Assembly (NCBI RefSeq): GCF_026151205.1
Contig: NC_087077.1
Location: 8,795,983 to 8,859,982 of the forward strand
Source: Bolinopsis microptera
Taxonomy: Eukaryota > Ctenophora > Tentaculata > Lobata > Bolinopsidae
DNA: 64,000 bases
Direction: 5' to 3'
Every line of letters starts with the position of its first letter. The first letter of the stretch is position 1. This document shows positions 41,957 to 64,000 of this stretch, one piece after another. The position numbers were made by a program, and so were the translations under genes. The notes under the pieces are model-generated. The model did not search any database. It was not told the DNA's origin and saw only the letters and a program-made list of their open reading frames with translations.

Positions 41957-43951
41957 ATTACTTGCTACATGAAATGCATTTTCGAACGCTGATCCCCAAT
42001 GACCTGGGAGTGGGACCGCAGGCCCCACTATCTATCAAGTAGTGACCCTCATTGTCGTTTCACTATAGAATAGTTTCAACCCAAGAAACCTTACTGGCTG
42101 GAGCCTAACTTTGAAAGTAAAAGAGATAGCGTCTTCCGGTTTTTTGCAAAATGTTCGTTTCGCAAAAATAACGTTTCCCCCCAGGGGAAAATTGAAAACA
42201 ACGTAGATTTTGAATTATCGCGAAAAGTCATATTTTAGGCCTTATAAAACTGCGTAGCTTTAACTTTGCAGATTGTTGTTCTCTGATTGGCTGAATCGTA
42301 TCACGTGGTACGCGGTACAATTGCATTCCTGGAATATTTGAAGCGTGCAAATGCAATGAACTAGCGAGCGCGCGCGGAGTTCAACATGCTGTGAAAAGGC
42401 GATCACCCTGTAGTAATATCGCTAGCCAGTAAGGATTGCTGGGAACGCAAACGATACAGGAGAAGCCGCGCACTCGGGCCATACAACCTATGAGTATAAC
42501 AATAAAGTCTTAATGCTTAAGTCTGAACTTCTGCAAAAGTCGAAATCGTGCAAAAATGAGATATGCGCAATGGTGTTAATTTTTGATGGTCAGCTAGAAC
42601 ATAAAAACAATTTTTTCTTGACAATTTCAAACAACCAAGCGTATGAAGCATTGTTATTAAAATAAAACGATATTTTGAATCAAGTGCGTCGCGTCACGCG
42701 CATTTCTGTAATTTTCATTACAATAAAATTGTATGAATCGAGCGCTATCACCAACTTCTTTACCTGAAGCTGCATTAACGAGTTCTTAGAAGCTTGTCCT
42801 TGCCTTGGTCAAAATTGAATTTGTTTGCAGAGCCTATCTAGTAAACTATTATAACCATTAATGCAAAGCCCATAATTTTTCGCCAGCCCACCAATAGATA
42901 ATATTCGCCTTCAAGTGGCATTTTATTTTCTTGATTTGCACAACATAAAAAGCATAATCAATAATAGAGTGTAGAGTTTCTGTCACAACAAGACTGCAAT
43001 CCCTAGCCTAGTAACAACACTTTATTTCTCCCAACAATTTGTATCTGGTCTAAGTAAGAGCCTTGTCTCCGAAAACTCATCTGGACTAACGTTTTGGTGT
43101 GTGCAAAAACTTCCAGGCCCTCACATTCCTTGCCCCGTTGCCTGTCCGTTTACAACCCAATTAGCAGTTAAAGACAGAACGTCATAAACCAAATGCGCAT
43201 TATATTTTCATTGTTGTAAATTTGTAGATTCTGTAAAATGTGCTAAAATTAAATTTCTTGTTTTATTGAAATTTCTTGTTTGATTGAGTAAGGGGTGTCA
43301 CAGAGTTTTATTCTCGCTGGAAAGCTGACCACCAACGCAACTCACAAGTGCATAATGATCAAAGAAAACCAAGATCAAGTTACAAATTACTGTCCAGGCC
43401 GACCAAATTGGCAGTTGTTCTGACTTGGCCACCCAAGCAGGTCATGAAGTGCAATCTTGGTTTACTAGATTTCACTCTGCTAATGTGACTGCAGCCCGGG
43501 GGCTGGCACAGACCTTGATAATTAGTAGAATTATTAGCTGTTTTAGATTTAATAATAATAATTTTATGAAATGTAAATCCTAACATTTAAACCTATAGGC
43601 TAGACATACTAGCAGCAAATTTGTGGCTAATAATCTCAGTATCCCAAATCTTGCAACTACGTTTTCTGGGCCGAAGGTTTAATAATAATGTAATCGTGCT
43701 TTTTAAGGGAGCCCTGAGCAGGGGAGTTCAGTTAGCAAATTGGTGGTATCATTGTGATATGTTTTGTTAATTGGAAGTTAGAAAGCTGATACTCTTCTTA
43801 GCACATTATATACACTAACTGTGGTACTATTTCCATGTAATTAACCTAATAATGTACAGTTGTAATAATTGACTTAATAGGAGTGTGTTAATTAACCTAA
43901 TCGAATCAATTATTTATTCCTAACATTCAATCTTCCCTGTAGGTATGGCCA
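41957..43951. other. Intergenic DNA before CENPX
   Basis: No coding feature is supported over 2 kb. It ends with CCTGTAG (AG at 43941-43942), an acceptor-like site nine bases before the CENPX ATG. Confidence 0.5.
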
Positions 43952-46900
43952 ATGGATTCCAATAACACCAAGGCCCTCTTTAAAGAGGTAAGGTATTTTT
44001 CATGTTTCTGATTTATTTGAAAAACCTGCACTGCTGTCTGACTTTTATTTATTTGTTCACAGCTAGTATACAAATCACATGATATTGTACACTTTTAATC
44101 AGTAATCATTGCTTGTTGACCACTAATATCATCATATTTTCAGTCTACAGTGACAAAGTTATTACAAGAGCACTTTGGAAACCCCAAGACTAAATGTAAG
44201 TTGTCACTCACGCCCTCCGACATTATATTAGTCCCAGTTAATAATAGTTAATATATTGATAGTCATTGTGCAATTAAATACATATTTTAGTTTTAGTTTT
44301 GTTGTCGCTCTGCTCCAATTGAAGCTTGGTACATTGTTGTGTTTGATAATGTTATACATTTTGAAGCCGTCGATTGTTGCCGTCAATTATTTTAATTTAA
44401 TTTCAATTATAATTCATATAATTCTGATTTAGATATTTCAGTATAATTATTTAATTTTGACATGTACACCGAAAGTAAATGTCATTCGGTTTATTGCAGG
44501 TGTACCTTTCAGAAAAAGTAAAATCATAGTTGTCACAATATTTACTTAAGTATATATTTATATAAGTGCTGTACTTTTCCTCAATTCGAAGTCTGTGAAC
44601 TTTTTAAGTTAACAGAGAACTGGACAATATCATTAAAAACTGCCCATCGGTCATTGTGACAACTATGGTTTTATCTTGCTCTTTGTTTTCTTGAACCAGG
44701 TATTTTTTAGCACTGATAGTAATCACAACTATCAGTCTTAACATTCATGATCTCAGATATAGCAGATTTAGGATGAGGTGGACTCTTTGGATTCTAACAA
44801 TTATCTGTATAATACTCCACATCAGTAGTTCACAAAGTAACCCTTATCACGTTCTGGGTGTTTCTAGATCAGCCTCCAAATCAGAAATTCAGAAAGCGTA
44901 CCGAAAGCTTGCCAAGAAATATCACCCTGATGTAAGTAGTGATCCTGATGCTGAAAGAAAGTTTACTGAAGTGGCTGCTGCGTATGAATCGCTGACAAAA
45001 GAACAAAACCAGCCCAAACAACAGCAAAGTAGACAGGGTGGATCCAGACAAGAGTTCTACTTCAACGGTCAGCGGTACACGTTCAGCGGAGGAAATGAGT
45101 TTGGGGGTGGCCGTGGATTTAACAGCTTTAACAACTTTCGGAAGAAGGAACCACACAAGGATTCTCCCATATTAACAGTTAAGCGGTTTGAACAGGAAGT
45201 TCTTCCAGACAGTTACATGTCAATTCATCTCGTTAAAGTTACATCTCGGTGGTGTTTCCTCTGTATGGAGTATGATCGAGCGTGGCCTGATGTCATGAAC
45301 CATTTCAAACCCTATGGTATGAAATTCTGGGAGTTACCCTATGACTCCTCAAATATGAAGCAGAAGATATCAGTCTATGAAACTCCATCATTTTTGATAA
45401 TCGTATCAGGACGGGTTTATCATTTCACCCTTTCTCTTACTTTCACAAACCTTGAGAGATTCATATTATCTAAAGTTCAGTCTGTTCTGGTTATGGATCA
45501 AGTGAACGACAGGAAAGTTGACACCTTTGTTGGTGATTTCACAGACTATAAAGCTAAGGTAATATTTGTCTCCAAGACATTCTCTTTTCCCCAAGCAATG
45601 GCTGCGTTCAAGTTTAAGGATTACTACAAGTATGGCTTCAGCTCAACTGATGACGAGTCTACAAAGAACATTCTACAGATTCTACCCTCACCAAGTAAAA
45701 TGGGAGTCATTATATTTAAGGAGGTTTACCCTGCGATAAGTAGGAAGGACAATGTAGATTCTATTGGGCAGTTACTGCAGATTCTTGAGGCCGAAAAGAA
45801 GTTGATTTTACCCAAAATAAGCTCTCCGAAAACATTTGATGAGATATGTTCTCGGTCTGTTGATCAACCATGTGTGATATTTGTGTTTGCTTCAAAAGAA
45901 GAGTACAAGTCAACCAGATTGCTGATTCAAACTGGAGAGCTTCAATTCAAACGAAACATGCAATTCTCTTTCTTATACCGTGATGCCCAATTTGAATTCA
46001 TAGAATCGTTCTTCCCACCGTATCCTCTGAACAATGTTCTGCTTCTAAAACGAACATCAAACACCCACGCTCACGTTTTGTGGCTCCCCAGATGGGATCT
46101 GTCTGATGTAGCCTCACTTTACATAAACTTAAGAGAGGGTGAAGCCAAATTGGGAGGAGATCGAGTAAAACTAGGCGCCATTATCAACGAACATGCTCCT
46201 TCACTCCTGGACAATGTTATGGAGTTCATATCATTCTCTATTGAGAGTACTATTGGACAAATACATCTGATCAGCCTCAACACCTGGTTATCAGTAATAT
46301 CTATAATAACACTCTTCTGTGTCACCTTCCTGATAAACAATGATCCAGAGGAAGCGCAGCGCCGTCAGCGCAATGGAGGTCAACAACAGAGCGCTGAGCA
46401 GCAAACCTTCCAAGAAAACACACCTAACTTTGTGGATTTGCCCGAGCTGACTGCTCTAACAGCTAGCAAACTCCTCCCCTCAGATAAATCACAGATGACA
46501 TTGCTCGTTGTGGGGGACCTTAAGGATGGAAGTTCGGTCCCTCTACCCGTTAGAGTTGTATCGGCTAAACTAAAAGAGTTGTGTATAAGAGGCCCTCAGT
46601 CCGTCGCTTTTGTCTCTCATGACAAATACGAATCTTGGTTGTTTTTGTTTGCTGAGCTGGCAGGGTGTAGGCTGATCCAGGGTTCGGTGATTGCGGTGAA
46701 CTTTAATAAGAAATATTTCAACTTCTTTACCCCAATCAACACATGTTCTAACTCCTCGTTAGTTAACCTGCAGGATAGGGTTACTCTCTGGTTTGAGAGG
46801 TTGTGTGAGGGAAGTTTACCTAGGTTCGGTCATGGGGAGTTGGAGTATCCTACAGGCTGATTTATTTAAAATTAGTATATATATATAATATATTGTAATT

Positions 46901-49900
46901 GATTAATAATTTATAATAGAATTTTAATCTTAAACAGAAATATTGATGGAGCTAATTATTTTTTTATTTTTTGACCTTAAAGTGACTTAACTTATGAACT
47001 TCCCCAATCTGTGTGAGTTGTGACTATATTTAACGGGCTTGCACTTTTCCAGCTAGTACATTTAATTTGTAGATTTCAATCGTAAGCTGAAATAATATAT
47101 GTTGTTAAATTTTTTGTTTATTCTGTATAGTCAAGGATCTGACGACATTCCCGTCTATATAACTTCCGCCCCGGGGTTTGAGACTTGGAATACCTCAAGG
47201 GACCCATTAGAAACAAATTTGGCTTGGGTAGAAATTTTGGCTATGGGGCAGTTTTGCGCAATTGACCACGCCCTTTTTTGGCGCTTTTGCAACTTTAGAA
47301 TCAAAATAACTTCGCTTCTAATTGGAATTAGAAGCTCAGCTTGGCTTTGAAGTTGTTCAGAATCATCACATTTAGGGGGGTAGAGCATAATTTTAAAGTC
47401 AACAGACATCGGGTTGTTGAGTTATGTGACCACACCCTTATTTACCCTCGCGAGTCGTGATTTTCACACTAAATACGAGATATCTCGGCTTCTGATTGAG
47501 CTACGTGCTCATCCTGGGCATTAAAATGTTCAGAATCATCACATTGAGTAGGGTAGACCACAATTTCAAAGTCCTCAGATGTCAGGTTGTTGAGTTATTA
47601 GGCCCCAACCTGTTTTTACGCTCTTGCGGGTAGCGATTGCAGCGCTTAAAATCAAAATAACTCAGCCTCCAATTGAAGTTAGGAGCAAAACTCGGGCAGC
47701 AAAATGTTCACAATCATCACATTGAGTGGGGTAGAACGTAGTTTCAAAGTCCTCAGACGTCAGGTTGTTGAGTTATTAGGCCCACACCATAATATTTACG
47801 CTCTCGCGAGTCGCGAGTCGACACTTAAAATCAAAATAACTCGGCTTCTGATTAGAGTTAGGAACTAAACTTGGGCATAAAAACGTTCAGAATCATCACA
47901 TTAAGTGGGGTAGAACGTGGTTTCAAAGTTCTCAGGCGTCAGGTTGTTGAGTTATTAGGCCCACACAATAATATTTACTCTCTCTCAAGTCGCGAGTTGA
48001 CACTTAAAATCAAAATAACTCGGCTTCTGATTAGAGTTAGGAACTAAACTTGGGCATAAAAATGTTCAGAATCATCACATTAAGTGGGGTAGAACGTGGT
48101 TTCAAAGTTCTCAGGCGTCAGGTTGTTGAGTTATTAGGCGGAACCCTATTTTTATGCTCTCGCGAGTCGCGAGTTGACACTTAAAATCAAAATAACTCGG
48201 CTTCTGATTAGAGTTAGGAACTAAACTTGGGCATAAAAATGTTCAGAATCATCACATTGAGTGGGATAGAACGTAGTTTCAAAGTCCTCAGACGTCAGGT
48301 TGTTGAGTTATTAGGCGGAACCCTATTTTTACGCTCTCGCGAGTCAACACTTAAAATCAAGATAACTCGGTTCCTGATTAGAGTTAGGAACAAAACTTGG
48401 GCATGGAAATGTTCAGAATTATCACATTAAGTGGGGTAGAACTTGGTTTCAAAGTCTTCAGACGTCAGGTTGTTAAGTTATTCGACGGAACCCTATTTTT
48501 ACGTTCTCGCAAGTAGTGATTCTATGCTTAAAATCAAAATAACTCTGCTCCGGATTAGAGTTAGGAATTAAACTTGGGCATAGAAATGTCCAGAATTGTG
48601 AACATTTTTATGCCCAAGTTTAGTTCCTAACTCTAATCAGAAGCCGAGTTATTTTGATTTTAAGTGTCGACTCGCGACTTGCGAGAGAGTAAATATTATG
48701 GTGTGGGCCTAATAACTCAACAACCTGACGTCTGATGACTTTGAAACTACGTTCTATCCCACTCAATGTGATGATTCTGAACATTTTTATGCCCAAGTTT
48801 TGTTCCTAATTCTACTCAGAAACCGAGTTATTTTGATTTTAAGTGTCGACTCGCGACTCGCGAGAGCATAAAAATAGGGTTCCGCCTAATAACTCAACAA
48901 CCTGACGCCTGAGAACTTTGAAACCACGTTCTACCCCACTTAATATGATAATTCTGAACATTTCCATGCCCAAGTTTTGTTCCTAACTCTAATCAGAAGC
49001 CGAGTTATCTTGATTTTAAGTGTTGACTCGCGACTCGCGAGAGCATAAAAATAGGGTTCCGCCTAATAACTCAACAACCTGACGTCTGAGGACTTTGAAA
49101 CTACGTTCTATCCCACTCAATGTGATGATTCTGGACATTTTTATGCCCAAGTTTAGTTCCTAACTCTAATTAGTAGAGGCTGTTACGGGCAAATATCACG
49201 CTTTTTTGCTCGAGCCCTGGGACTTCTTTTAGGGTTCTTATATGATAGAATGGAGTGTACTGAACACTCTGACGGTATCGGGAACCTTCTAGAGCCTTCA
49301 GAAGCTGTGTTGTGAGCACTTTACTGCCAAAACTTCGGACATCTACAGACACCGGAATATCGACTAAAAATTTTTTCTGAGTTGTTCCCCTAATTTCTCT
49401 TAGGTTGCTTAAGCCCCAGAAAGTGTCAGATCGTCTAAATATTGCTCCATTCCGGTGTTAGAGACCTCGAAAATTTCGACCACGTAGAACGTGTTGCGCG
49501 TCGTATGTAGTGTTTACAATGAAAAAAGTGCACTTAAATCTGATTCGGTTGCGGCGCGTGACGTATCTAGCACGATATTTGCTCAAAAGCGCGTCACTGC
49601 GCCAGAAACCTCGTGGTACCGTAACACTGTAGAAAATAGATAATCACAAGAGACACAATAAACGTATCATCACTATGCAAAGTTAATGTTAAAATGATAC
49701 AATAGCCCTGCTTTAACAGATTAATCCACATAAACACTATATTTCTACAGATGCCACCGATCGGTAAATCGAACATGTTTTTGAAGATAAATCGTCTTAC
49801 GGAACGATAGCTGATAGAATTCGTTTCTACATTGAAAGATTTCTTTTCTAATCTCCGTTATGAGTGCTGTCTTTGTTAAAGTGTTATCATCTCTATCCGA

Positions 49901-52900
49901 ATCTATTGTTGCGGCAAGATTAGATACAAACTCGTCTTACCGACATTGTCTTTCTGAAAACTGATGTGATCAGATTAAACATTGCTGGAGTTTGCAGCGT
50001 TCTCAGATAAATTAGACGTCACATAGTCATTGTACTTAAGCTTCAGGTCAGACACGAGGTACAGTTCTGGTAAAACATTCTCCTGCTCCAGTTAAAAGGT
50101 CCGTACAGCGTCAATACCTGCACTCATTAATGCAGCATTGGTGTTGTCGTGCGTGGACACGTGTCTTTCCATTTTAAAACAGGTTTTTAGAGACAGGTTT
50201 TAAACTTACAGCTTCAGATAATTTACCCTTCAATTGTTTCACCCTCGAGTTGCTGTACCTCAAACGACACGTTTTGTGATATCTACCTAGCTTGCTATAG
50301 AGATATTTTCCGAGACTCTCAGGGTTAAGAACAGGGCACTTGTTCATGTGCGAATCAGGATTAACATCGATGTTGCACAGATCCTGACGATTTCTGTAGA
50401 TGTCCACAGATAGTATGTTGCGAAATCGACGAAGAAACTTTTATCTTTTCCTTGAATCAGACTATCCTTTTTCGTTTCTAACGTCTAGGGAAATTCGTAT
50501 TGTTAAAGAAGAATATCCTCTCATACTCTTAAAATTAAATCGAGATAATATGTATAATAATTATATTTGCGAGCAAAAGTTTCACACAAACCTGTTCAAC
50601 CTGGCATATGAAACACAAGTCTCAGTCCATTTCAAACAAATCAACATCTGGTCCACTTGATTGGGAACTAAATGAAGAAAGTCTCCACATTTTCTTAGTT
50701 CTATTCGAGGAGGCCGAGGGTGACAAAGGCGGGACTTTTTCCACTTGGATGGCAATAGCTTCTTCAATCTTCATCACAAGAAGATTCGTCAATTTCAGAA
50801 ACAGCACTGTACACCTGCAAATACTTTATTACTTCCCACATTTATATCAACAGTATCATATCACATAAGTTTGAGATCGTACAAGTGTTATATCATTTTA
50901 AAAGTTTGCAAATCCGATAGAAATGGATTAAAAATTACTACTCGCTGTCTATTTAACTTTGAATAATAATGTTTTTAAATGTTAGTAAAACAGGAGGAAA
51001 CCACTCACCCTGTTATAGTTGTCTTTTACATAGTTAAGACACTGAATACACAAAAAAGAGGTTTGCTTTGGTGAGCACAACCCAGGATTGATCTTCTGCA
51101 GCAGGGCGAGGAATTCTCTAGACTGTTTTGTCATTCGTTCACTTTCAGAGCGGAAGAAAACTGTTTCATTAAAATCCTTTATTTCTATTCGGGTACAGAT
51201 ACAGCACTCTGAAAATTGATGAATGATCACATTTTTGTATACCTTACGGCAAAGTCTTATGTCTGTGGTAAAAGAATGATATTCTTTCAATAGTATTTTA
51301 TTAAAGCCTAAACTTAACTTCTACCAATTCAAAATTGTTTACGTCGGTCTCCCCTCCTTGAGCCACTTTTCACATAGCTATTGAGTATAAATCACTCTAG
51401 CACAAGCGACTTCAAACCCCCTCCCCTAGGCTGGATTAGGTTATATGTGAACTGTGCTCTAGTGCATGACTGACTTTACATAATGCAGAGCATGCAAAGT
51501 TTTGATGTTTCATAAACTTATGAATAAAGTTTTTTAAATCGTGACATAAAAAGCAGTGGTCGCCCGGTGCCCCGGCCAAAATCACAACCCCCAGCGGGCC
51601 CAGCCCTTCCCGGCCCCGGCCAAAAATTGGCAATTCGCCGGGGGTAAACACCGGCCCCGGCCAATAAATTTAACCCCGGCCAATTCTCAGTGGTCAGCCC
51701 GTCAGCCCAGCCCCAGCTATATTGGGGCTCCCCGGCCCCGGTCAGAATCCTGCCCCCGGTCGACCACTGATAAAAAGTTAACTCACTGGATTTGTCCAAA
51801 AGCGAGAGAAAGTACTGAGAAAGCACTTATACGTCACCACCAGAGGGCCTAGAGAGGTTATCTTTGTCTGTTTAATTGAATATTGAGTATATAATATGAG
51901 ATTTAAGATGAACATGATAGATATAATGTCCAAATTCTAAAGTTCCACCAAAATTGAGTCACATTAAACTTGGTTAACACAACAATTTTCTTCATTATAG
52001 TAGGTGATTTGACATAGTGAAGTGTAAACTAAATTATTATTTATAATAATTACCTGTCGGAGGGATTTAAGTGTTCCTTTGAACAGTCCTTTTCTGGAAG
52101 GTTGAGAGCTTTCAATACATCCAGAGAGCCAAATTGGATTCGTCCTTCTTTCGGGCATTATATGCAGTCTTTGATATGATGCCTTGTACATTTTGAAACC
52201 CTGCAGTTATCATTATTCAATACTTATAGAGCCTTAGATAAGGGGTTAGGGGTCGTTCACATAATATTGTGTAATTGCAATATAGTAAGGTTACTGTACA
52301 TTTCCAACCCTTTGTCATGTATATCACAACAGATGATGTTAAAAGCATACTTATATTATGATACAGTTTTACAGTTTTTGTTACGTGTTGATAATCTAGC
52401 TCTTATCTCTATTTTATCGCTACATTACAACTGCCGGTTGGATCACTGAACTCGCGGAAGCTACGAACCGTGACAATAAATCTGAGTTTTCAGTTGAAAC
52501 GTTCAAAAAGCCAGTGAAGTCAGTTTCAGTAAAACATTTGTAATTTGTATTCTGCGTATCAGACTACCGATAATCATGTAAGTACGTTTCTGGATAACAA
52601 GAAAGATATGGAGGAGTTGAAGAGCGATCTTATCCGATCGCAAAGTACTGTTATCAAGCTGCAGGCTGAACTTCTGGAAACTAAATCGAAGCAGTTGGAA
52701 TCCGTGCACTCCAACGTCAAGACCGCCGTTCAAGACACTGTCCAAGCTGAGATGAACTCATACAGTCAAGCTGTGACTAAAAATGCACCTGTGCTTGCAG
52801 AAGAGAGTTTAAAAAAGGTTGTACAGAATGCTGTATCGGAAGAGGATCGCAGTAGGAATGTGCTCATCTTTGGTTTGAAGGAGACTGATGAAGAGGAACT

Positions 52901-55900
52901 GTGCAATAAAGTTACCGTGATTTTTCAGCAGATTGAAGAAAAACCACGTTTTGAAGCTATCTGGGTTGGGAGAAAATCAGCCAACAAGACGAGACCAGTC
53001 AAAGTTTCGCTAGGTAATTCTAACTTACCGTTCATGAGATATTAGTAAATGCCAAAAAGCTGAGACTGTGTGAAGATCATAAGACTGTTTTCATCTCTCC
53101 AGATCGATCACCTGAAGATCGAGCTATCCATCAGCGGTTGGTCTTGGAAATGAAACAGATAGCCAAAGCAGGCATGGCTCCACCGTGTAGGTTCGGGTGG
53201 GTGCGCACCCACCAAAGGATGTTGCACCCACCCAAACGATTCGAAAATGTTCACACAAAAATTGTCAAATTTTGTATAAACTAAGGGTCAATTGACTTCT
53301 GTTATCAATTGAGACTGTTTTGGAGATATTAAAATACGTTTAGGAGAGTAAAATTCCAAAATTTTCCAGGGGGCTTCACCCCCCCCCCCCCGCCGTGCGC
53401 CAAGCTGCACCCACCCAAAGTTTTTGAGCTGGAGCCATGCTTGAGCCAAAGAAGACACAAAAAAACATTATTATATCAGAAGTGGTAATATTTGTAGTGA
53501 GGACAAGATGTTAGAGAGTGATACATAATAATGAGTGATATACATCCATAAGTTTTTAATTTTGATTGTTGATATAAGCGGGATAAAAATAATTTATTTC
53601 ATTTGTATTGGACGGGACATACACAAAGATGCTACGTATGGTGCTGGGTATCTCATGGAAGGACAAGGTCAGCAATATAACTTTGTATGGTAGTCTACCA
53701 AGGCTGTCAAACAAGTTACGAAGCAGGAGACTAAAAATGGCGGACACTGCATCAGACATCCTGAGCTACTTGCCAGTGATTTAGTCTTATGGAAACCTAT
53801 GCATGGTAGAGCACAGCAAGGCCGACCAAGACAAAGCTACTTGTCTATGTTACTGAAGGAAATTGGGACAAACTCAAAAGAGGAACTGTGAACCCTGATG
53901 CGGGACAGGGATATATGGAGGGGGTTATCTGGCGTAGATCGGACTTAGTTCCGAAAAAATAGTAGTACCTATTTCATTAATAACCTGCATAGTTGAAAAG
54001 TTGATTGATGTAGTTTCGATAAACAGGGCGTCGTTCAACTCCACTCATTTCGTTCCAAGCTGGAATGTAGTATTGTTTAGTGTAGGTTTGTTCATGTACC
54101 TCTCATCATCAAAAGGTTTCAACTTATACAGCATCGATAACATCATCTAACAAAGCTGTTTGAACAGCTTAAGATTCAGTTAAAATTACATTATTCAGAT
54201 ACAGTTTGTGAAATGAAACATTGTCAGCCTGTATTTAATTAATTATAATAATTATGGTAATTTAGCTAAAAATCAAACCATTTGAGTTTTCATTGTTATC
54301 AAAATAATTTCGATCTAAATTCGTCTTAATCTGCATGGCTGTGAGCGGATCGAAGTCTTTTAACAAACCACAAGATTCTTGAAGTGATCCGAATGTACAC
54401 AGAGAACTGTCTTAGCTAGTTCTGGGTCCATAAACATGTCACCTTCTTTCTAATGGTGATTGTCAAGTTTGTTCAGCAACATAATTCAGAATTACAGAAA
54501 TTATTTGAATCTACTAGAGATGAAATGGCTTAAATAACAAGCAATAGATGTAACTAAACAATTAAATACATATTGTAGTTTGACTACTTCTTTGAAACAA
54601 TCAAAGAACGGGGGAGCTAAGGGAATGATTGCTCAAAACGAATGATATCTTCATGAATTCAATGCAGCATCTATACATTTATTCGAAATAAGTGATGGAT
54701 GAGGGGGTTTAAGTCAGGCATTCCTGACATTTACTCTGATGTCAGGGGCCTTTTATATATTATATTTGAGTATAATACATTTTACCTTATAATTAACCAT
54801 CACTCCCGTCTAGGAAGTACTATGTATTTGTGTATGTAATTGAGATCGTATCAGCGCCTTTCATTCTACTCAACGCGTTTCATTCTCATATATGTCAAGC
54901 TTGTTTAGAGTAGAATGAAACGCGTTGAGTAGAATGAAAGGCGCTGATACGATCTCAATTACATACACAAATACATAGTACTTCCTAGACGGGAGTGATG
55001 GTTAATTATAAGGTAAAATGTATTATACTCAAATATAATATATAAAAGGCCCCTGACACTACTACTATTTATAAATTCAAAATCATGTTAAGAAGATAGC
55101 AGCAACTAATCCATATTATTTACAGTGCTCTATTTTATGTGTACTGAAGAGTGCCTTTACAATATTCCACTTTGTGGTGTAGATTTCCTCCATATCCAAC
55201 AGGCAACACTGAATGAGTGATGGATGAGGGGGTTTAAGACAGGTGTTCCTGACATGTATTCAAAATTGCATTGAGAAGATAGCAGTAACTAATCTATATT
55301 ATTTACAGTGCTCTATTTATGTACTGAAGGGTACCTTAACAATATTTCAGTTTGTGGTAGGGTTCCTCCACATCCAACAGGTAACACGGAATGAGTGATG
55401 GATGAGGGGGTTTAAGTAAGGCATTCCTGTCAAAAGATCTATAATTAATCTTGTAAGGGTACCACACAGTAGACATTATATTGTTGATTGTGAACCAAAA
55501 GTTTATTCATACCCACAATCGATAAATTATAAATCCAAATAGTCATATAAGCAATGCAATACTAAATTGGTGAAATTGTATTAACAAAAGGTATACAGCC
55601 AAGTAAAGGTATCTCAACAATATAACATTGAAGTATTAGAAATGGCACTCTACTATTATAAAACACTTTACTGTACTGTATTAAACAATATTAAATGAAA
55701 TTAAGCCAGAGAAGGCATGAACTTCAGAAAAGGACAATACACTAACGGTACAAAAACTTAAATGAGTTTCAGGGAAGGGTTACTAAAATTTTACGGTAGC
55801 GCTCGATTTTATTCAAAAATTTTCAAAGTGCTCAGCACCACGAAAAATATAATTTTTTCTTCCGCTTTCAAAACTTGTTTTGACGCTGAAAAACTATCAA

Positions 55901-58594
55901 ATAGTATTATTGAACAGTATTAAAACACTTTGTGGGCAAAAATATTTCATTTTGGATGTATAAAGAGCCGATAAAATTTAGCGCGCAAAAAAACATTTTT
56001 TTTGGAAGGTTTTTTAAAATTTTGAACAGGTTAACTCTTATGTGTGCTTATGAACTTAATATTAGCTAATGCGGCATATCAAAATGTATCAGAAACCGAA
56101 ATATCTAAGCTTTTGCTTGAAATTAACCTATCGATAATCCTGAAAAACCTCAAAAAATGACCATTTTTAGGGCCAAAAATCGGTTTTTTTCAAATAAAAC
56201 CAGGTTACCCCCATTTTCAACACTTCCCACTATCACCAATCGATTCAGGGGCCAAAAATACGTCTTTTAAGACATGTCTGATGACTCTGGTGTATCGAGC
56301 AGAAAATCCCCGTAACAGCTCCTACTAAATCAGAAGCCGAGTTATTTTGATTTTAAGTGTCGACTCGCGACTTGCGAGAGAGTAAATATTATGGTGTGGG
56401 CCTAATAACTCAACAACCTGACGTCTGATGACTTTGAAACTACGTTCTATCCCACTCAATGTGATGATTCTGAACATTTTTATGCCCAAGTTTAGTTCCT
56501 AACTCTAATCAGAAGCCGAGTTATTTTGATTTTAAGTGTCGACTCGCGACTCGCGAGAGCATAAAAATAGGGTTCCGCCTAATAACTCAACAACCTGACG
56601 CCTGAGAACTTTGAAACCACGTTTTACCCCACTTAATGTGATGATTCTGAACATTTTTATGCCCAAGTTTAGTTCCTAACTCTAATCAGAAGCCGAGTTA
56701 TTTTGATTTTAAGTGTCGACTCGCGACTCGCGAGAGCGTAAATATTATGGTGTGGGCCTAATAACTCAACAACCTGACGTCTGAGGACTTTGAAACTACG
56801 TTCTACCCCACTCAATGTGATGATTGTGAACATTTTGCTGCCCGAGTTTTGCTCCTAACTTCAATTGGAGGCTGAGTTATTTTGATTTTAAGCGCTGCAA
56901 TCGCTACCCGCGAGAGCGTAAAAACAGGTTGGGGCCTAATAACTCAACAACCTGACATCTGAGGACTTTGAAATTGTGGTCTACCCTACTCAATGTGATG
57001 ATTCTGAACATTTTAATGCCCAGGATGAGCACGTAGCTCAATCAGAAGCCGAGATATCTCGTATTTAGTGTGAAAATCATGACTCGCGAGGGTAAATAAG
57101 GGTGTGGTCACATAACTCAACAACCCGATGTCTGTTGACTTTAAAATTATGCTCTACCCCCCTAAATGTGATGATTCTGAACAACTTCAAAGCCAAGCTG
57201 AGCTTCTAATTCCAATTAGAAGCGGAGTTATTTTGATTCTAAAGTTGCAAAAGCGCCAAAAAAGTGCGTGGTCAATTGCGCAAAACTGCCCCATAGCCAA
57301 AATTTCTACCCAAGCCAAATTTGTTTCTAATGGGTCCCTTGAGGTATTCCAAGTCTCAAACCCCGGGGCGGAAGTTATATAGACGGGAATGTTGTCAGAT
57401 CCATGACTAGTATAATTTGCTGAGCATTTCATATAATCAAACTTTTATTAATCCCCGCGTCTCAAACCAAGGTATTTTAAAACATTTTCAGTAGATCAAT
57501 ATGTACCTGATTACCATAATTCTTGGTACAAATACTGATCGTGTAAAACTGACACTTCAAATAGTTAAGGTACTGACAATACTTACGATCGTAAGTATCC
57601 GATGGTCGCCATCATGACGCCTTTCAACTGTGAGTATCTACATTCAAACAGACAGTGAAAATACACCTGCGCTCAAGCTTGCGACACGAATATTAAAAAA
57701 CCGTGACCGTTGAAAGTGAGAGTTTACACTGCCGATTACAATAGTTTTCACTGTCTGTAGCATTAAATACGTTGCCCATATTTTAATTACGTTAATTAAC
57801 TTTTACTTTAATTACGTTAATTAACTTTTACTTTAATTATGTAAGTAAGGTTAAAACCATCACAACCAGCATGTGGGCCAGCAATTTTTGGGCCGGCCGT
57901 AACATGTATTGCACTGTGATTAGGAGACAGATTTAGCGGCTTGGGCAGCTTTTGGGCCCGCCATACTAAACTGTCGACCGGTGGGCTGTGCCCGCCACCT
58001 AGACTTTTACTTGATCATAAACTGTGTTTATGTAAGAACTTTAAAATCATAATATTAGCTTAACAGCATTCTTTATCATGAGGATTTATTATTCATAATT
58101 ACCATGTTCTATTTTATGCATTATGTTATGCTATTACTGCTGTACAATGAAGTACTCAACACGATCAATAATATTGATTTTCCTCAGTGAACGCTGAAGG
58201 ATCCGCCCTTGTAACGGAATACCTCGGCCTCTTTGTAAAAGGTTGGTCGCTAGATCACATTTTTGTCAAATAGTTCACCAGTGACAGAGATTATGTAATC
58301 GGAATTCGCTAGTTTGATGATTTCAGTTCTAGTTTAAACAAAAATTTCCCCTCAGAGATCATCAGTAGAGCCGAACGGCAGGCTAAAACAGAAGGAGATT
58401 CACAGGTGGAAGGCTCCCATCTAGAGAAAGTCATCCCTCAAATTGTAAGTAAACTGTTCAGGCTAACTCAAAATAACTTAATAAGCTATGTTTTCTGGTA
58501 TAGGTATGAGTAGAGGGTATAATTCGAAATACCTAACATTGTTGGGATTGCTGTTTTAACCATTTCTCCATTTCAGCTCCTCGACTTCTCATAA
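43952..58594 (+). CDS. CENPX: Centromere protein X (CENP-X/MHF2), five exons over 14.6 kb
   Basis: Exons: 43952-43987, 44144-44195, 58188-58241, 58356-58444, 58577-58594; phases agree and give 82 residues, matching the ~81 of human CENP-X. It is a histone-fold protein that pairs with CENP-S in the kinetochore CENP-T/W/S/X complex and in the FANCM-MHF complex. Evidence is the whole-length pattern: [40 protein letters not shown], and the diagnostic C terminus [13 protein letters not shown]. Intron 2 (44196-58187) is almost 14 kb and contains DNAJC16 and a large nest of transposons, while the other introns are 100-160 bp. The stop TAA (58592-58594) overlaps the ATG of the next gene in the same exon. 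Confidence 0.92.
44519..44673. repeat. Short inverted-repeat element in CENPX intron 2
   Basis: TAAAATCATAGTTGTCACAA... (44519-44539) and its complement (44653-44673, two mismatches) bracket about 113 bp. It could be a small MITE or a hairpin. It lies just upstream of DNAJC16. Confidence 0.6.
44773..46860 (+). CDS. DNAJC16: DnaJ homolog subfamily C member 16 (ER membrane co-chaperone)
   Basis: An intronless 695-residue frame. It begins with a signal peptide ([20 protein letters not shown]), then a J domain at about 23-75 with HPD at 51-53, which stimulates Hsp70 ATPase. A Gly/Phe/Gln-rich linker follows, then a thioredoxin-like region with CFLC (161-164) after LVKVTSRW. A long lumenal region comes next, then a membrane segment near 503-521 ([15 protein letters not shown]) and a cytosolic tail. 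This order matches DNAJC16 (782 residues in human), a single-pass ER protein. The ATG lies 16 bases after an acceptor-like TCTCAG (44755-44756). The gene sits inside CENPX intron 2 on the same strand. The lack of introns could reflect retroposition, although no poly(A) tail relic was seen. Confidence 0.93.
50206..52190 (-). CDS. Putative multi-exon protein of the 7.2-kb element, cysteine-rich
   Basis: Minus-strand segments look like exons with proper borders. About 52190-52055 ([20 protein letters not shown], donor after LRQ). About 51225-51004 (ECCICTR ... [15 protein letters not shown], donor GTGAGT). About 50800-50625 ([20 protein letters not shown], weakest). And 50393-50206 ([18 protein letters not shown], then [17 protein letters not shown], acceptor CTACAG, donor GTAAGT). 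The second segment has paired CxxC motifs with a hydrophobic spacer, like a zinc-binding ZAD- or THAP-type module. The last has C...H...C with a basic tail. The exon chain is not proven, and no transposase catalytic core is recognised. Likely encoded by the transposon, function unknown. Confidence 0.35.
51554..51769. mobile_element. GC-rich hAT-type MITE, 216 bp
   Basis: CAGTGGTCGCCCGG at the left and CCGGTCGACCACTG at the right are inverted with one mismatch. An 8-bp duplication ATAAAAAG (51546-51553, 51770-51777) flanks it. The inside is CCCCGGCC-rich, unlike its AT-rich surroundings. Confidence 0.9.
52545..53951 (+). pseudogene. Decayed LINE: ORF1 fragment and ORF2 tail
   Basis: From about 52560 the frame encodes a coiled-coil region ([20 protein letters not shown]), then an RRM-like part ([16 protein letters not shown] ... 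[16 protein letters not shown]) typical of LINE ORF1 proteins. After a frame shift near 53040 it continues as [20 protein letters not shown] to 53168. A hAT MITE interrupts at 53169-53443. From 53613 the C-terminal tail of an ORF2 follows ([17 protein letters not shown], then [14 protein letters not shown]), with another shift near 53740 and a stop at 53889. Endonuclease and reverse transcriptase are missing, so most of ORF2 is deleted. CR1/L2-like by resemblance of the tail. Confidence 0.75.
53169..53443. mobile_element. hAT-type MITE inside the LINE relic, 275 bp
   Basis: CAGGCATGGCTCCA and the reversed TGGAGCCATGCTTG form 14-bp ends with one mismatch, flanked by AGCCAAAG on both sides (53161-53168, 53444-53451). 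A GTGGGTGCGCACCCAC palindrome and a C-run lie inside. Confidence 0.9.
54690..55440 (+). repeat. ~179-bp tandem repeat, three copies
   Basis: GAGTGATGGATGAGGGGGTT starts at about 54692, 55213 and 55392. Copies 2 and 3 are 179 bp apart and share GAAGATAGCAG and TACAGTGCTCTATTT segments. Copy 1 is interrupted by the palindrome at 54741-55057. Confidence 0.85.
54741..55057. repeat. Near-perfect palindrome, 146-bp arms
   Basis: Arms 54741-54886 and 54912-55057 appear to be exact reverse complements around a 25-bp spacer. The outer ends are GTCAGGGGCC / GGCCCCTGAC. It sits within the first unit of the 179-bp tandem repeat, so it is probably a small foldback insertion. Confidence 0.93.
55441..56320. 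other. Right interior of the 7.2-kb element, no gene seen
   Basis: AT-rich DNA without a supportable frame on either strand. Confidence 0.5.
57413..58187 (+). other. Distal part of CENPX intron 2
   Basis: No gene. About 2.6 copies of a 25-bp unit containing TTAATTACGTTAATTAAC lie at 57782-57842. A GGGCCGGCC palindrome lies near 57890. Confidence 0.7.
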
Positions 58595-58596
58595 TG
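58575..58596 (+). promoter_or_regulatory. Shared acceptor and TAATG stop/start overlap of CENPX and downstream gene
   Basis: The acceptor TTTCAG (AG 58575-58576) opens an exon holding the last five CENPX codons, TAA at 58592-58594, and ATG at 58594-58596 in another frame. The A is shared. Either a bicistronic mRNA with termination-reinitiation, or trans-splicing at this acceptor, could give the second protein. Confidence 0.7.
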
Positions 58597-61500
58597 ACAC
58601 TATCAGTAATGGATGATCTAGACTTCAACACGCGATATGACTGTCCTAAATGTGAGAAACTTGAGACTGATCTCAAAACTTCTAAATCAGAGGTAATGTT
58701 CTAGAATAATGTATCGATTATAATATCATATTAAATTATAAAAACTGTAGATTGTCTTTTTTATAAATTACAATTGTTCAAAATGAAATGTTAATAAGAA
58801 AATTACTGTTGATAAGATTAATTAATTAATAAGTCTATTAATCTTACAATATTATGATCTAAAATCCCAGGTTGCTGATTTGCGAAACTTGGTAACAGTA
58901 ATGAGAACTCAGACTGCTAAAACTACAACACTGCTCCACAAATTTGATACGACTAAGAAAACGTTGCTGTTACAGAAGCAGAAAATAGAAGCAGTGAGTT
59001 GTTACTTATTATATCAGCAATACAATTTATAATAACAATTTAGTGGATGCTTTAACTAAAAGATTTAATAAAACTTCACAATGATATCTTATACATAATA
59101 TTATTAAATTTACTGCTTATGATGTTTATTGATAATGGGCTGAGATGGTGATTGGAAATTCACCTACTCAAATTTCAGTTAGAGAAACATAACGGGATAC
59201 TAAAAGCTGAAGCGAAGACAGTAAACGAGCAACTAAAGAAACAGCTCGACTCCACAGAAGATTCCAACTACCTCAAAAGTTCAGACGAAAACGAGGAACT
59301 TCGAAACAACATGCAATCTCAGCAGGCTGTTATCGAGCAGTACAAAGCACAGTTCTCTAGAATGGAGAAGGAAATAGAGGTGTACAAAAAGAGGAAGACC
59401 GAGGCTGAGAGGGCGTGCAGTTTATTACAGGCTAAAGTGGCAAAGTTGAAAGATAGCTCCAAATCCGAGAAGAAGCAACCTGATAATTCAGAGGCTATTG
59501 CTAAGTTGAAGTCTGAGATCGGTGTCTTGAAAAGGGAGAATACCCGGTTGAAAGACAGTCGAGAGGAAACAGTAAACAGACTTGCTGATAAAAAGAACCA
59601 AGATATAACCAAGAAACTGACTGCCATGATGAATAAGCAAACCAGTTTAGATACTACCATAGAAAAAACTATCGAGCGAACTATACAGAGAAACTTAAAA
59701 GATATCCTGCTATCTCCAACGAAGGGAGGGAGCATGTACCGGACACCTGCTGCTCGGCCTCGCAGGAACACTAAGAGCACAGAGGGAGGTGTTACACCTA
59801 GCACGCCTACATCTGCCAAGAAACGAGGTAGACCTGTTGGGTGGAAGAAAAACAAACCTAAGCAGTCCAGTTCTGAAGAGGACAGTGAGCTAGAGTTGAA
59901 CCCCAGACCCAAGAAGAGCGTCAAGAGGCCAGTCAAACGGAAACTTAGCCATTCAGCTGAACCAAAGAAGAAAGCGAAACCCTTGGTTCAAGATAGTGGG
60001 CACTTGTCAAACAGCTCCTCGGATGATGATGTAGACTTGGTGGGATTCCTGGAGAATTCCTTAAATTTTCCAACTAGCGCTAGGAGCGAACCTGATGGGG
60101 TCTTGGTATGTGATGCTTTGCCTTCCACATCGAGTGAGTTCAATCTGTTTGACCAGCATTCTGCTGAAACAGATGGTATTCCTAAAGAATCTCCTAAACT
60201 TATGAATTCCCCCAAACCTATGAATTCCCCCAAACCTCAAAGAAAAGTGCCCACAGTACTCAATGTAAAGAGCATCTTCAGTTTAATGGTTTCTCCTGGA
60301 CAGCTTTCACCTTTGAAGACATATCAAGAAAGCAATAACCCTGCCGAGCTAATTGATATAAAAAATGAAGAGCAAGGTACCACTAATCCTCAACCAGCCG
60401 TTCCAATCTCCTTGGAAGAATTTTCTGTAGAAACTCCCTCCTCATCCTCTGGTCCCACACCCGCTGTTTCCAGTCCCAAGACTACTCCTAAGAAGGAAGA
60501 CCAAACCATCTTAGATCTGATTGGCTCCTCAAAATCTCCAGCTCGGACCGTTTCTCCTATTGTTACAGAGACTGCTTCGACAGACCCATGTTTTCAACCT
60601 ATTTCAATAAAAAACGAAATGACGAAGACGAAATCGGAGCCAAACGACCCCATCATTACCCTGAAGCCAATGTCTAGTAGAGAAGCTAGATCAGCTCCTA
60701 TAGTCTCGACTCTTGGAGACCTGTTGAGCCCGAGTAAGGTAGAGTCTGACTCCGCAGCAGCCAGTACACCAGATGTTGAGATTGTTAGTGTGGTTCAGGT
60801 GGAGAGGGAAGAGCCGTGTGTCTCGGCGTCTGATTCTCAAACTGAAGACGATTTACCAGAAGTTTCCACTGCTAAACCGGTAACGAAATCATCAAAGTTC
60901 AAACCAGTTCAGTTAGCAGCTCCATCAACCTCTCAAAACTCAGAAGATGAGCGAACGACTTTTCCAGCCAAGACTTCACGGCCTAGTTTCAAACCGGTAT
61001 CTTTTGTAGCTAAGTCTTCAAGACCTAGTTTTAAACCTGTAGCTTTTGCGACAACAGCTGTCCAAAAGCCCACCCAGCAAATTACTAGTGTTTCCTCTAG
61101 CAGCCCCAAGTCACGGTTTCCTCCTATTTCAATGTCGTTCTGTAAACCGAAAACAAGCTCCATTTTATTACCACCAACGGTTACAAAGGGTTACCAAACC
61201 CTTACGCAGCCTGATATTGTTCAGAAAGTAAACCTGCCTCCTATATCAATATCCTTCGTCAAACCGAAAGCAAGTCCCAGTTTATTACAACCTAAGGTTG
61301 TGGAGCCGGATATTGAACATGAAGCAGACTTACCTACAACCTCAGATACTGGAGTTCCAACAACCTCCTCAGTTCCTGATCTAACGACAAAGCAGGAAGA
61401 GGACTACAAACCCTCAGTGACAAATGGGCCAGTTTTATCTCCTGCAGTGCCCTCTCCTGGAATTGCCATTGAAGCTTCATCTACTTCCAATGAGAAAGAA

Positions 61501-64000
61501 ACTGAGTCTCATGAATCTGATCCACTCTCCGTTTTATGTAATAATGATGCCACCCCTCAAGTGGCTCTTGAACCTGAAACTTCTTCTGTAACTCCGAAGG
61601 TAAAATCGGAGAAATCACCCACCAGGAGACAATCAGAGGTCAATGTCACATTGTCTAGTGATAGCCTAGTAACCCCTACAACTCCCACAGAAGTGGTTGT
61701 CTCTGAAGATGTCATGGTATGTGCTTTTGAGATGGATATCAGTGGTGTAAGCAGCAGTCAGAGCGATGCTGATACTCAGTCAGACAGCGCTGCTGATGTT
61801 TCTCAATCTCCCAAACAAGTTGAGATCTATCATGAGCTACTGCCTACAACACGGTCAAGAAAGTCAGCTTCAAATAATGATGCTTTTGTTGCTCCAAGGC
61901 GGGCCAGGGAACGCAAGAGTATGTCTCAAGATCAGGATAAACAGCCTGAGGTGATCACTAAATCATTGAGAAGCAGGAAAGTCAGTGTTACTGAAGAGTC
62001 TGCAGAGGTTCCCAAGCGCCGGAGATCAGCAAGGACTTCAAGCGTTTCTGATGTTAGTGACAGTAGTAGATCACCTGCACCTAGAAGATCTAGGAGAATC
62101 CAGAACTCAACCAGTCCAGTCAAAGCACTAAAACCAAAGAAGAGTCCCATGAAGAAGGCACTTCCAGAAACATTGACTCCAGAGGAGATGATTGTTGATG
62201 AAGTTATCCTAGGTTCTGAAAACAGGAATATCATGATTCCTAGCGATCTTATGGAGCTCAAGAAGTCAATAGACCAAGCACAACTTCAAGAAACCGTTGT
62301 CAAAACTCTCGAACAATCTGTGGTCCCTGAAGTTGAAGAGCCCCAAAACATATCAAATGAAGTTCAGAGTATCGTGAAACCAGAACAAAATGACAGTTCT
62401 GATAATCTGGAACCTCTCAAAGTCCCTGCCATGGAACTGGCTGTGTTTGCTGAAAACACTCTTGAACCTGCTGCTGAAGACACTCATGGTCCTGCTGTTG
62501 AGTCCATTCCAGGACCTTCGCTCCCTCTGAAAACATCTAACACTGACCTGTCTCCTCTTGATTCACCTGTGGCATTGAAATATTCTGATGAAAATAATGG
62601 AGCTAAAGCTGTTGACACGGCAAATGATATCAAAGGTCAAGTCCAAGTGAATGCGGTTACCGTACAATCTGATACAGTGAAAACACTGACAAATTTGTCA
62701 GAGAAAAGGAAAGTTGCTAAATCTTTACCGTCACCTGCAGTGAAACGTATTCCTCCACCACCTTCGGGAGACTGGCATGCAGTAAAGTCTCTTGATCTAA
62801 ATCTCACTCCAGTGTCCAGAAAAGTTGAAGCGAACAATGTTGATGGTCATTTCAACATAACTGCATTATCTAATAAAGGAAAAGTCCAGAAATCTAACAG
62901 TGTAGAAAAGAAAAGAGAGAGAAGAAAGAAGAGAAAAGCTGCAAAGGCTGTCTCATCGCTTACAATAAAATCTGTGCCCCCACCTTTATGCAACTGGGAC
63001 TTAGTAAAATCTCTAGATCTAGATCTTACTCCAGTCTCCAGGACGGTACAACCCTTCAAAGAAGCACCAATCCCTGATTCTTCAGATATTTCAGATGAGG
63101 ACTTGATGATTGCTGATACAACTGTTATAAGTCAGGATGTTGAGGATGTTCAGAAGGTTGAGGTTGATATTACGGTTGATGAAGATGAAACCTCTACATC
63201 GGCAGTGCAAGTAGAGAAATCAGATGAAGCTCCAAAACTTATGACTGAGAAAGAAAAGACTGTTAAAGTTGTAGTTCCCCCCTCTTCTGAATGGTTTACT
63301 GCAAAGTCTCAAGATTTCACTTCAGTCGAAAAACTACCATCTTTCAACGCAGCAGCTGCAATAAGTGATCAGTCTGACTCAGAGCTACCTTCCAAAACTA
63401 CAGAATCTAGGAAGAGGAAAAAGACGAAAGGACCAGACCACTACATCTCCCTCGCTCAAATATTTGACATATTTATCCCCAAACCTGCTATCACACTTCT
63501 TGGTTTTAACAAAGACAACGACCATCTCGTCATGGATACAAGTGACTGTGAATCTCAGGTACCATCACCTGCCGCTTTTAGCAGTACTCAAAAACCCATC
63601 GAATCAGTTGATATGAATCTTCTGAGCAATCTAAGAACCATGGCAAAGAAAGGTGCAGAACCTGCGTTACCAGTAGATGATGAACCATTGTACCACCAGA
63701 CATATGAGGACTACACACATTTGGTACCCAACGGAACTACACAGCATCTGGTAGGAATGTTTAGAAGGAATCTCTGTACCAGTGCACCAGATGTACCGTA
63801 CATTGTGGAAACAATAGTGTATAATCATAAGAAAAAGGCACTGCAGAATATAGAAGAAAAGTTGATAATAGCTATCAGAAATGAGATCAGTATTCGAGAT
63901 ACCAGCCCGGCTAACGTCGAGATTCCTCCCATTGATGTTTTGGTGGAATTCTTCTTTGATTTGTTTTCTCAGTTGGTAAATAACGATTACTCATACTTTG
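58594..64000 (+). CDS. Long coiled-coil and disordered nuclear protein, possibly ICE1; continues past window
   Basis: Exons: 58594-58692, 58871-58993, 59179 to beyond 64000; in phase, at least 1,680 residues with no stop. The N terminus has a CxxC pair (YDCPKCEKLETDL, Cys17/Cys20) followed by about 170 residues of coiled coil. This resembles the N terminus of ICE1 of the little elongation complex, which promotes snRNA transcription. An AT-hook-like KKRGRPVGWKK (residues 288-298) and many basic patches suggest nuclear location. The middle is Ser/Pro/Thr-rich and disordered, with internal repeats: SRPSFKPV twice near 60985-61040, PPISMSFCKPK and PPISISFVKPK (61121, 61231), and a W-KSLDL motif three times (62749-63325). 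From about 63680 the sequence becomes folded-looking (HLVGMFRRNLCTSAPDVPYI and on). The ICE1 assignment rests on architecture and the CxxC-coil start and is uncertain. Confidence 0.6.

What the first reader, a model, noticed from the sequence alone, without database searches (positions are those of the whole stretch)
58577..58596. CENPX stop codon overlaps the next gene's start codon (TAATG) in a shared exon
CENPX exon 5 is only 18 bp long and ends TAA; the ATG of the long coiled-coil protein uses the last A. Both models have matching splice phases on their own sides, so the overlap is not an artefact of a forced start. TAATG is a known layout for termination-reinitiation, and it places a kinetochore/Fanconi histone-fold protein and a putative nuclear scaffold on one transcript.
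Basis: partly seen in the sequence, partly recalled or inferred. Interest (0 to 1): 0.75.

Follow-up and report, generated by a model that had tools for sequence, protein, structure and literature searches.

The report
Comb-jelly genes sharing a splice site
In a comb jelly, the last 18 coding letters of one gene run straight into the start of the next, and the splice site that makes the first gene's end is probably also where a spliced leader is joined on to start the second, a compact layout that RNA data could confirm or refute.

Summary
CENPX ends in an 18-nt exon (58577-58594, LLDFS-stop) whose TAA shares its last A with the ATG (58594-58596) of a 1987-residue model that I read as ICE1 (named against a recalled human sequence). 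The spliced 82-aa CENPX matches Pfam CENP-X end to end (E=1.5e-21). The pentamer itself is chance-level: 30 of 653 TAAs in 26 kb are followed by TG.

Termination-reinitiation is not the best explanation. The genome fits the ctenophore Bolinopsis microptera and holds 78 exact copies of a spliced-leader donor; the leader has 39 identities over 44 nt to that of Hormiphora. The four window genes whose start I could place have an acceptor-like site 6-17 nt before the ATG; for ICE1 it is the CENPX exon-5 acceptor at 58576. Most likely one 3' splice site serves both: cis-splicing makes CENPX, leader trans-splicing makes ICE1. This resembles zero-gap operons of Ciona and SL1-type operons of Caenorhabditis; a 2021 paper says operons were unreported in ctenophores. 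No RNA evidence was available, tight pairs were not shown to be common here, and conservation could not be tested.

The parts
43943..43987 (+). CENPX exon 1: acceptor-like AG ends at 43942, a 6-codon uORF starts at 43945, CENPX ATG at 43952
   Evidence: acceptor score only 4.0
44144..44195 (+). CENPX exon 2
   Evidence: phase 1 out into exon 3
44773..46860 (+). DnaJ-domain gene with an uninterrupted 695-aa frame (DNAJC16-like, name recalled), nested in CENPX intron 2, same strand, acceptor-like site 16 nt before its ATG
   Evidence: (DnaJ E=2.3e-20)
58188..58241 (+). CENPX exon 3
58356..58444 (+). CENPX exon 4, donor gtaagt
   Evidence: the only PF09415 match listed in G000, alone below the family cut-off (21.9 bits)
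58559..58576 (+). 3' splice site ACCATTTCTCCATTTCAG: cis acceptor of CENPX exon 5 and proposed spliced-leader acceptor of ICE1
   Evidence: score 7.1 left out of its own matrix, best of 10 AGs in 58445-58640; the next scores 3.1
58577..58594 (+). CENPX exon 5 (L L D F S stop); the first 17 nt would be the ICE1 5' UTR after the leader
58592..58596 (+). TAATG: CENPX stop and ICE1 start share one A
58594..58692 (+). ICE1 exon 1 (coding)
58871..58993 (+). ICE1 exon 2
59067..59072 (+). AATAAA in ICE1 intron 2; possible poly(A) signal for a short CENPX mRNA (speculative)
59179..64000 (+). ICE1 exon 3, continuing past the window to 64482

Best explanation
CENPX and ICE1 form a zero-gap, operon-like pair in a spliced-leader (SL) animal. 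The 3' splice site at 58576|58577 has two uses. Joined in cis to the CENPX exon-4 donor (58444), it adds the 18-nt exon that ends CENPX. Joined in trans to the ctenophore SL, it yields a capped ICE1 mRNA: leader, 17-nt 5' UTR, AUG. The TAATG overlap follows from this packing and is not itself the device. Shown: the two gene models, the SL RNA-like genes, and acceptor-like sites just upstream of many other start codons. Inferred: that the SL is actually joined at 58576, and that the ICE1 precursor comes from the CENPX promoter and not from a promoter inside CENPX. If one precursor feeds both, each precursor molecule can give CENPX or ICE1 but not both.
For: G000 (264.65 Mb; C1 26,206,493 and C11 20,825,282 bases) fits Bolinopsis microptera as tabulated in PMC11797021 (265 Mb, largest chromosome 26.2 Mb, N50 20.8 Mb; passages). 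The SL donor AAATAATTTGAGGTAAGATTAAG occurs 78 times, reversed control 0. The 44 nt before the donor have 39 identities to the H. californensis leader, score 28 against a maximum of 14 in 2000 shuffles. The SL RNA-like unit folds better than shuffles (z=-3.3, 1 of 200 as good). In H. californensis 56% of Iso-Seq reads carry the SL (passages). An acceptor-like AG within 60 nt upstream of the ATG scores >=3 in 23 of 30 surveyed genes (16 of 20 after reducing a tandem array to four members) against 30% of control windows; >=5 in 18 of 30 (14 of 20) against 16%. In the window: MMAA 6 nt (11.7), CENPX 9 nt (4.0), DnaJ gene 16 nt (9.7), ICE1 17 nt before the ATG. 58576 scores 7.1 left out and is the best AG nearby.
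Against: No RNA was available. A strong cis donor (gtaagt, 58444) lies 132 nt upstream and should favour cis-splicing. CENPX intron 2 is 14 kb and holds another gene, so a shared primary transcript would be long. PMC7986045 (2021) says operons were not reported in ctenophores (passages). Pfam screening upstream of six other genes found a same-strand neighbour in only 1 of 6, 542 nt away, so tight packing was not shown to be common. 7 of 30 surveyed genes had no acceptor-like site at score 3, and the CENPX one is weak. Acceptors near an ATG can also be cis acceptors of 5'-UTR introns. The acceptor matrix was built from only nine cis sites, all of these same two genes.
Confidence: 0.6

Rival explanations
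1. ICE1 has its own promoter inside CENPX (intron 2 or intron 4). Its mRNA either starts just before 58594 or includes CENPX exons 3-5 as an untranslated leader. No trans-splicing at 58576 is needed.
For: CENPX exons 3-5 hold no ATG in any frame, so scanning would reach the ICE1 AUG first. The last ATG in intron 4 is at 58506, leaving 58509-58593 free.
Against: ATG absence in the CENPX CDS is expected about half the time from synonymous codons (P=0.51; 0.75 with its own codons). Most surveyed genes here have an acceptor-like site close to the ATG, as this one does.
Confidence: 0.2
2. One cis-spliced dicistronic mRNA makes both proteins. ICE1 is translated by termination-reinitiation at UAAUG, or by leaky scanning past the uORF and CENPX AUGs.
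For: UAAUG is the influenza B M1/BM2 layout (PMC3035654, passages). There is no AUG between the CENPX AUG and the ICE1 AUG in the spliced sequence.
Against: No UGGGA core of TURBS motif 1 anywhere in the CENPX CDS. The CENPX ORF is 82 codons long. An ICE1 exon junction 98 nt after the CENPX stop would mark the RNA for decay (NMD rule, recalled). SL trans-splicing is available.
Confidence: 0.13
3. One of the models is wrong at the junction: CENPX normally uses another last exon, or ICE1 starts elsewhere (second ATG 58609 or an upstream exon), so the overlap is nominal.
For: ATG 58609 (GTAATGG) is a usable start with its own weak acceptor (4.1). The frame upstream of ATG 58594 is open through the acceptor.
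Against: LLDF, the conserved CENP-X end, is encoded only at 58577 on the + strand of 58400-66500, and CENP-X family coverage is complete only with this exon.
Confidence: 0.07

Closest known systems
Ciona intestinalis operons resolved by SL trans-splicing (PMC2760879, passages; PMC7986045, passages)
   Same: Same-strand genes directly abutted without intergenic DNA, with a 3' splice site at the boundary; a leader that also serves ordinary genes
   Different: Here the proposed acceptor lies inside the upstream coding sequence and is its last cis acceptor; no RNA proof yet; different phylum
SL1-type operons of Caenorhabditis (PMC9258526, passages)
   Same: No intercistronic region, same leader as ordinary genes
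   Different: The passages describe genes directly adjacent to one another; here the 3' splice site is 15 nt before the upstream stop codon, inside the upstream coding sequence
Influenza B M1/BM2 UAAUG termination-reinitiation (PMC3035654, passages)
   Same: Identical stop-start pentamer
   Different: No motif 1 core in the upstream ORF; cellular gene with introns; an SL route is available
Nested genes and trans-spliced leaders of Hormiphora californensis (PMC8527503, passages)
   Same: Nearly the same leader; 2357 genes nested in introns of others are reported there
   Different: That paper has 0 occurrences of 'operon' or 'polycistronic' in its main text

Membership tests
SL-resolved operon (Ciona / SL1-type) | genome encodes a spliced-leader RNA | tested here: met
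   78 donor copies, 39 identities over 44 nt to the H. californensis leader, SL RNA-like unit; its expression was not tested
SL-resolved operon (Ciona / SL1-type) | same-strand neighbours with no intercistronic DNA | tested here: met
   stop and start share one base; both models hold
SL-resolved operon (Ciona / SL1-type) | 3' splice site immediately upstream of the downstream start codon | tested here: met
   58576, 17 nt before the ATG, best AG in 58445-58640
SL-resolved operon (Ciona / SL1-type) | downstream mRNA carries the SL at that site | not testable with these tools
   no RNA reads held
SL-resolved operon (Ciona / SL1-type) | both genes transcribed from one promoter | not testable with these tools
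   no RNA reads held; a DnaJ gene lies in between
SL-resolved operon (Ciona / SL1-type) | gene order kept in relatives | not testable with these tools
   states that G000 has no relatives here
TURBS-dependent termination-reinitiation | overlapping or adjacent stop and start | tested here: met
TURBS-dependent termination-reinitiation | motif 1 (core UGGGA) upstream of the stop | tested here: not met
   no TGGG in the 249-nt CENPX CDS; the ctenophore 18S helix 26 was not examined
CENP-X (PF09415) | full-length family match | tested here: met
   E=1.5e-21, 76.9 bits against cut-off 25, 2-74/74
ICE1 / KIAA0947 | sequence similarity to human ICE1 | tested here: inconclusive
   C-terminus: semi-global score 124.5 against 53.8+/-11.7 in shuffles, z=6.0, 0 of 1000, maximum 64 over 52 other windows of the same protein (one gap setting). 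But the human letters were recalled, blastp hits of N- and C-terminus were not significant, and phmmer placed the real C-terminus below 11 of 500 shuffles
ICE1 / KIAA0947 | C-terminal MIF4G-like fold | tested here: inconclusive
   all-helical single-sequence model, mean pLDDT 41.8; no Pfam match

The most novel reading that the evidence does not exclude
One 3' splice site is a switch between two proteins. Every CENPX-ICE1 precursor is spliced at 58576 either in cis, giving CENPX, or in trans to the SL, giving ICE1, so SL supply sets the ratio. ICE1 belongs (recalled) to the little elongation complex, which acts at snRNA genes, and is reported to promote exon-junction-dependent RNA decay in human cells (PMC5896957, abstract and passages). 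It could therefore feed back on SL RNA supply and on decay of the cis-spliced read-through RNA. As far as my searches show, it would also be the first operon described in a ctenophore.
Probability: 0.25. Interest if true: 0.75.

Novelty: new variant of a known kind. Interest (0 to 1): 0.5.

Why it matters
If the site is used in trans, operon-like gene packing resolved by spliced leaders extends to comb jellies, a lineage at the base of animals. It would also show a case where the trans acceptor lies inside the upstream coding sequence, so that cis- and trans-splicing compete directly. That makes a question about SL systems, what decides between cis and trans at one site, testable at a single locus.

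Tried and rejected
Absence of ATG in the CENPX CDS as a sign of leaky scanning: rejected. Synonymous recoding gives no internal ATG in 51% of 20,000 draws, and 75% with its own codons permuted. The codon table of the first test included the DnaJ gene read off frame, so 0.51 is approximate; the second test is unaffected.

TAATG as significant in itself: rejected.

CENPX first exons: a regex search of 52,000-58,175 found nothing; comparison with CENP-X N-termini over 38,000-58,186 found exon 2 at 44144, and exon 1 was then read by eye.

ICE1 by ordinary searches: Pfam gave no match to the long protein above its cut-offs and PDB nothing for its C-terminus. Against the recalled human sequence, the best three C-terminal blastp hits had E 0.25-0.77 and fell in the right order, the N-terminal hits had E 2.6 or worse, and phmmer put the real C-terminus at E=3.8, below 11 of 500 shuffles. 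Only the semi-global test separated it. The structure model was too poor to search.

Operon packing elsewhere: Pfam screening of about 1.4 kb upstream, same strand, of six genes (L010, L011, L012, L024, L025, L029) gave 1 of 6 with a coding neighbour (DBP10 C-terminus, 542 nt gap, L024) and one sub-threshold match (L012, E=0.0053). This does not show that tight pairs are common. In the acceptor survey, 18 of 22 LSM matches and 28 of 113 Ras matches were cut as loci. Of those 46 I used 33 (10 LSM, 23 Ras) and dropped 13 whose match starts inside the domain. Three of the 33 had no usable ATG, leaving 30. L040/L041 and L048/L050 have near-identical upstream sequences and were counted separately, also among the 20. 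One search read minus-strand loci in the wrong orientation; one search corrects it.
Full report
What is there. At 58559-58596 the window reads ACCATTTCTCCATTTCAG|CTCCTCGACTTCTCATAATG. Spliced to four upstream exons (43952-43987, 44144-44195, 58188-58241, 58356-58444) the 18 nt after the AG complete an 82-residue protein. It matches Pfam CENP-X from model position 2 to 74 of 74, E=1.5e-21, and solved CENP-X chains to their C-terminal LLDF. The family search of the genome lists one place only, CENPX exon 4, which alone is below the cut-off. The ATG that shares the A of TAA opens a second model of six exons and 1987 aa, finished in the next stretch of the contig.

Chance. TAATG is not rare: 30 of 653 TAAs in a 26-kb stretch are followed by TG, and 321 of 1581 stops of any kind have an ATG at -3..+5. 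What is unusual is that two coding genes meet without a gap and that the downstream gene's first coding exon begins at the upstream gene's last 3' splice site.

Which genes. CENPX is secure. The long gene has no Pfam match above a cut-off and no PDB match for its C-terminus. I read it as ICE1 (KIAA0947). A semi-global comparison of its last 347 residues with human ICE1 as I recall it gives 124.5 against 53.8+/-11.7 for 1000 shuffles (none as high) and at most 64 for 52 other windows of the same protein (one gap setting). Local searches with the same recalled letters were not significant for either end, and phmmer placed the real C-terminus below 11 of 500 shuffles, so the name is likely but not proven. 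A C-x2-C motif before a coiled coil at the N-terminus also resembles the recalled human protein. That ICE1 is a subunit of the little elongation complex is recalled; that this complex is recruited to snRNA genes is in an abstract of the listing (PMC7044329). PMC5896957 describes ICE1 as promoting NMD through a putative C-terminal MIF4G domain (abstract and passages). My single-sequence model is all-helical but too poor to use.

Which organism. G000 has 264.65 Mb in 232 contigs. I saw the lengths of 12 of the contigs C1-C13, 16.3 to 26.2 Mb, with C1 at 26,206,493 and C11 at 20,825,282 (C12 not seen). PMC11797021 Table 1 gives Bolinopsis microptera 265 Mb, 13 chromosomes, largest 26.2 Mb, N50 20.8 Mb (passages). 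The number of scaffolds differs (346 there, 232 here). Looking beside the 5S genes I found, on the minus strand of L008, an SL RNA-like unit: leader ending AATTTGAG, GTAAG donor, a hairpin, ATCTTTTGG, a second hairpin. In the predicted fold (z=-3.3, 1 of 200 shuffles as good) both hairpins form, but the Sm-like stretch between them is partly paired. The 44 nt before the donor have 39 identities to the leader of the ctenophore Hormiphora californensis; the true 5' end here is not known. A 23-nt piece across the donor is present 78 times, 0 in the reversed control. So this is a ctenophore with SL RNA genes. In H. californensis 56% of Iso-Seq reads carry the leader (PMC8527503, passages).

What the start of a gene looks like here. 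I built an acceptor matrix from the nine cis acceptors of the two models and scored 60 nt upstream of the ATG in 30 LSM and Ras-family genes. 23 of 30 have a site scoring at least 3, and 18 of 30 at least 5, against 30% and 16% of control windows (20 per locus, further upstream); with a tandem Ras array reduced from 14 to 4 members it is 16 and 14 of 20. In the window I could place the start of four genes, and each has such a site: MMAA 6 nt (score 11.7), CENPX 9 nt (4.0), the DnaJ gene 16 nt (9.7) and ICE1 17 nt before the ATG. Starts of the other window genes were not placed. The ICE1 site is 58576. It scores 7.1 when left out of its own matrix, and the next best of the 10 AGs in 58445-58640 scores 3.1. 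Acceptors this close to start codons are what SL addition leaves, though 5'-UTR introns could give some.

Mechanism. The most economical reading is that 58576 is an ordinary SL acceptor for ICE1 that also serves as the cis acceptor of the CENPX exon of 18 nt. Two sources for the ICE1 precursor remain open: the CENPX promoter (an operon), or a promoter within CENPX whose transcript is trans-spliced. Under an operon, cis and trans use of the site exclude each other on one molecule. CENPX then needs a poly(A) site inside ICE1; candidates are ATTAAA 58730, AATAAA 59067 and ATTAAA 59103, all in ICE1 introns. This step is speculation.

Against reinitiation. The layout is the influenza B one, but the CENPX CDS has no TGGG at all, whereas motif 1 (core UGGGA) is described as essential in such signals (PMC3035654, passages). 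Helix 26 of the ctenophore rRNA was not examined. The lack of internal ATGs does not help the case.

Known or new. Abutting operon genes without intergenic DNA are typical in Ciona (PMC2760879, passages), and SL1-type operons without an intercistronic region exist in Caenorhabditis (PMC9258526, passages). PMC7986045 states that operons and polycistronic mRNAs had not been reported in ctenophores (passages). My searches for ctenophores with spliced leaders, trans-splicing, operons or polycistronic RNA listed 11 different papers, none for Bolinopsis with polycistronic. I opened passages of 4 of the 11 and saw no ctenophore operon described in them. The library holds only open-licence papers, and Derelle 2010 was not held. 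I therefore call it a new variant of a known kind, pending RNA.

Limits. No transcript, no second ctenophore genome and no annotation could be consulted. Tight packing was not shown to be common: 1 of 6 genes examined had a Pfam-visible same-strand neighbour within about 1.4 kb, at 542 nt.

Noticed in passing
44773-46860 (+): A DnaJ-domain gene with one uninterrupted 695-aa frame (DNAJC16-like, name recalled) sits inside the 14-kb CENPX intron 2 on the same strand; lack of introns suggests a retrocopy or an SL-capped nested gene.
   Followed up: partly
L008, L009 and G000:C3:13511047-13551295: SL RNA-like genes lie in tandem with 5S genes (units of about 855-885 bp on C5 and C13) and in a separate array with about 591-bp spacing on C3; one of the two copies in L009 is one T short in its Sm-like site.
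   Followed up: partly
43943-43965: CENPX exon 1 begins GTATGGCCAATGG: a 6-codon uORF (MANGFQ stop) overlaps the CENPX start, 2 nt after the presumed SL acceptor.
   Followed up: no
56317-57242: Diverged tandem repeat with a 179-bp period, 5.2 copies, in CENPX intron 2. By eye, an inverted copy of the sequence next to it (about 57310-57410) lies near 47140-47250.
   Followed up: no
G000:C1:12425539-12459122: A same-strand array of 22 Ras-family matches (exons counted apart) in 34 kb, 14 of them nearly full-length in one open frame, several with acceptor-like sites close to the ATG.
   Followed up: partly
L024:203-1845: A DBP10/DDX54 C-terminus is followed 542 nt later on the same strand by an LSM-domain gene, a possible second tandem pair.
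   Followed up: partly
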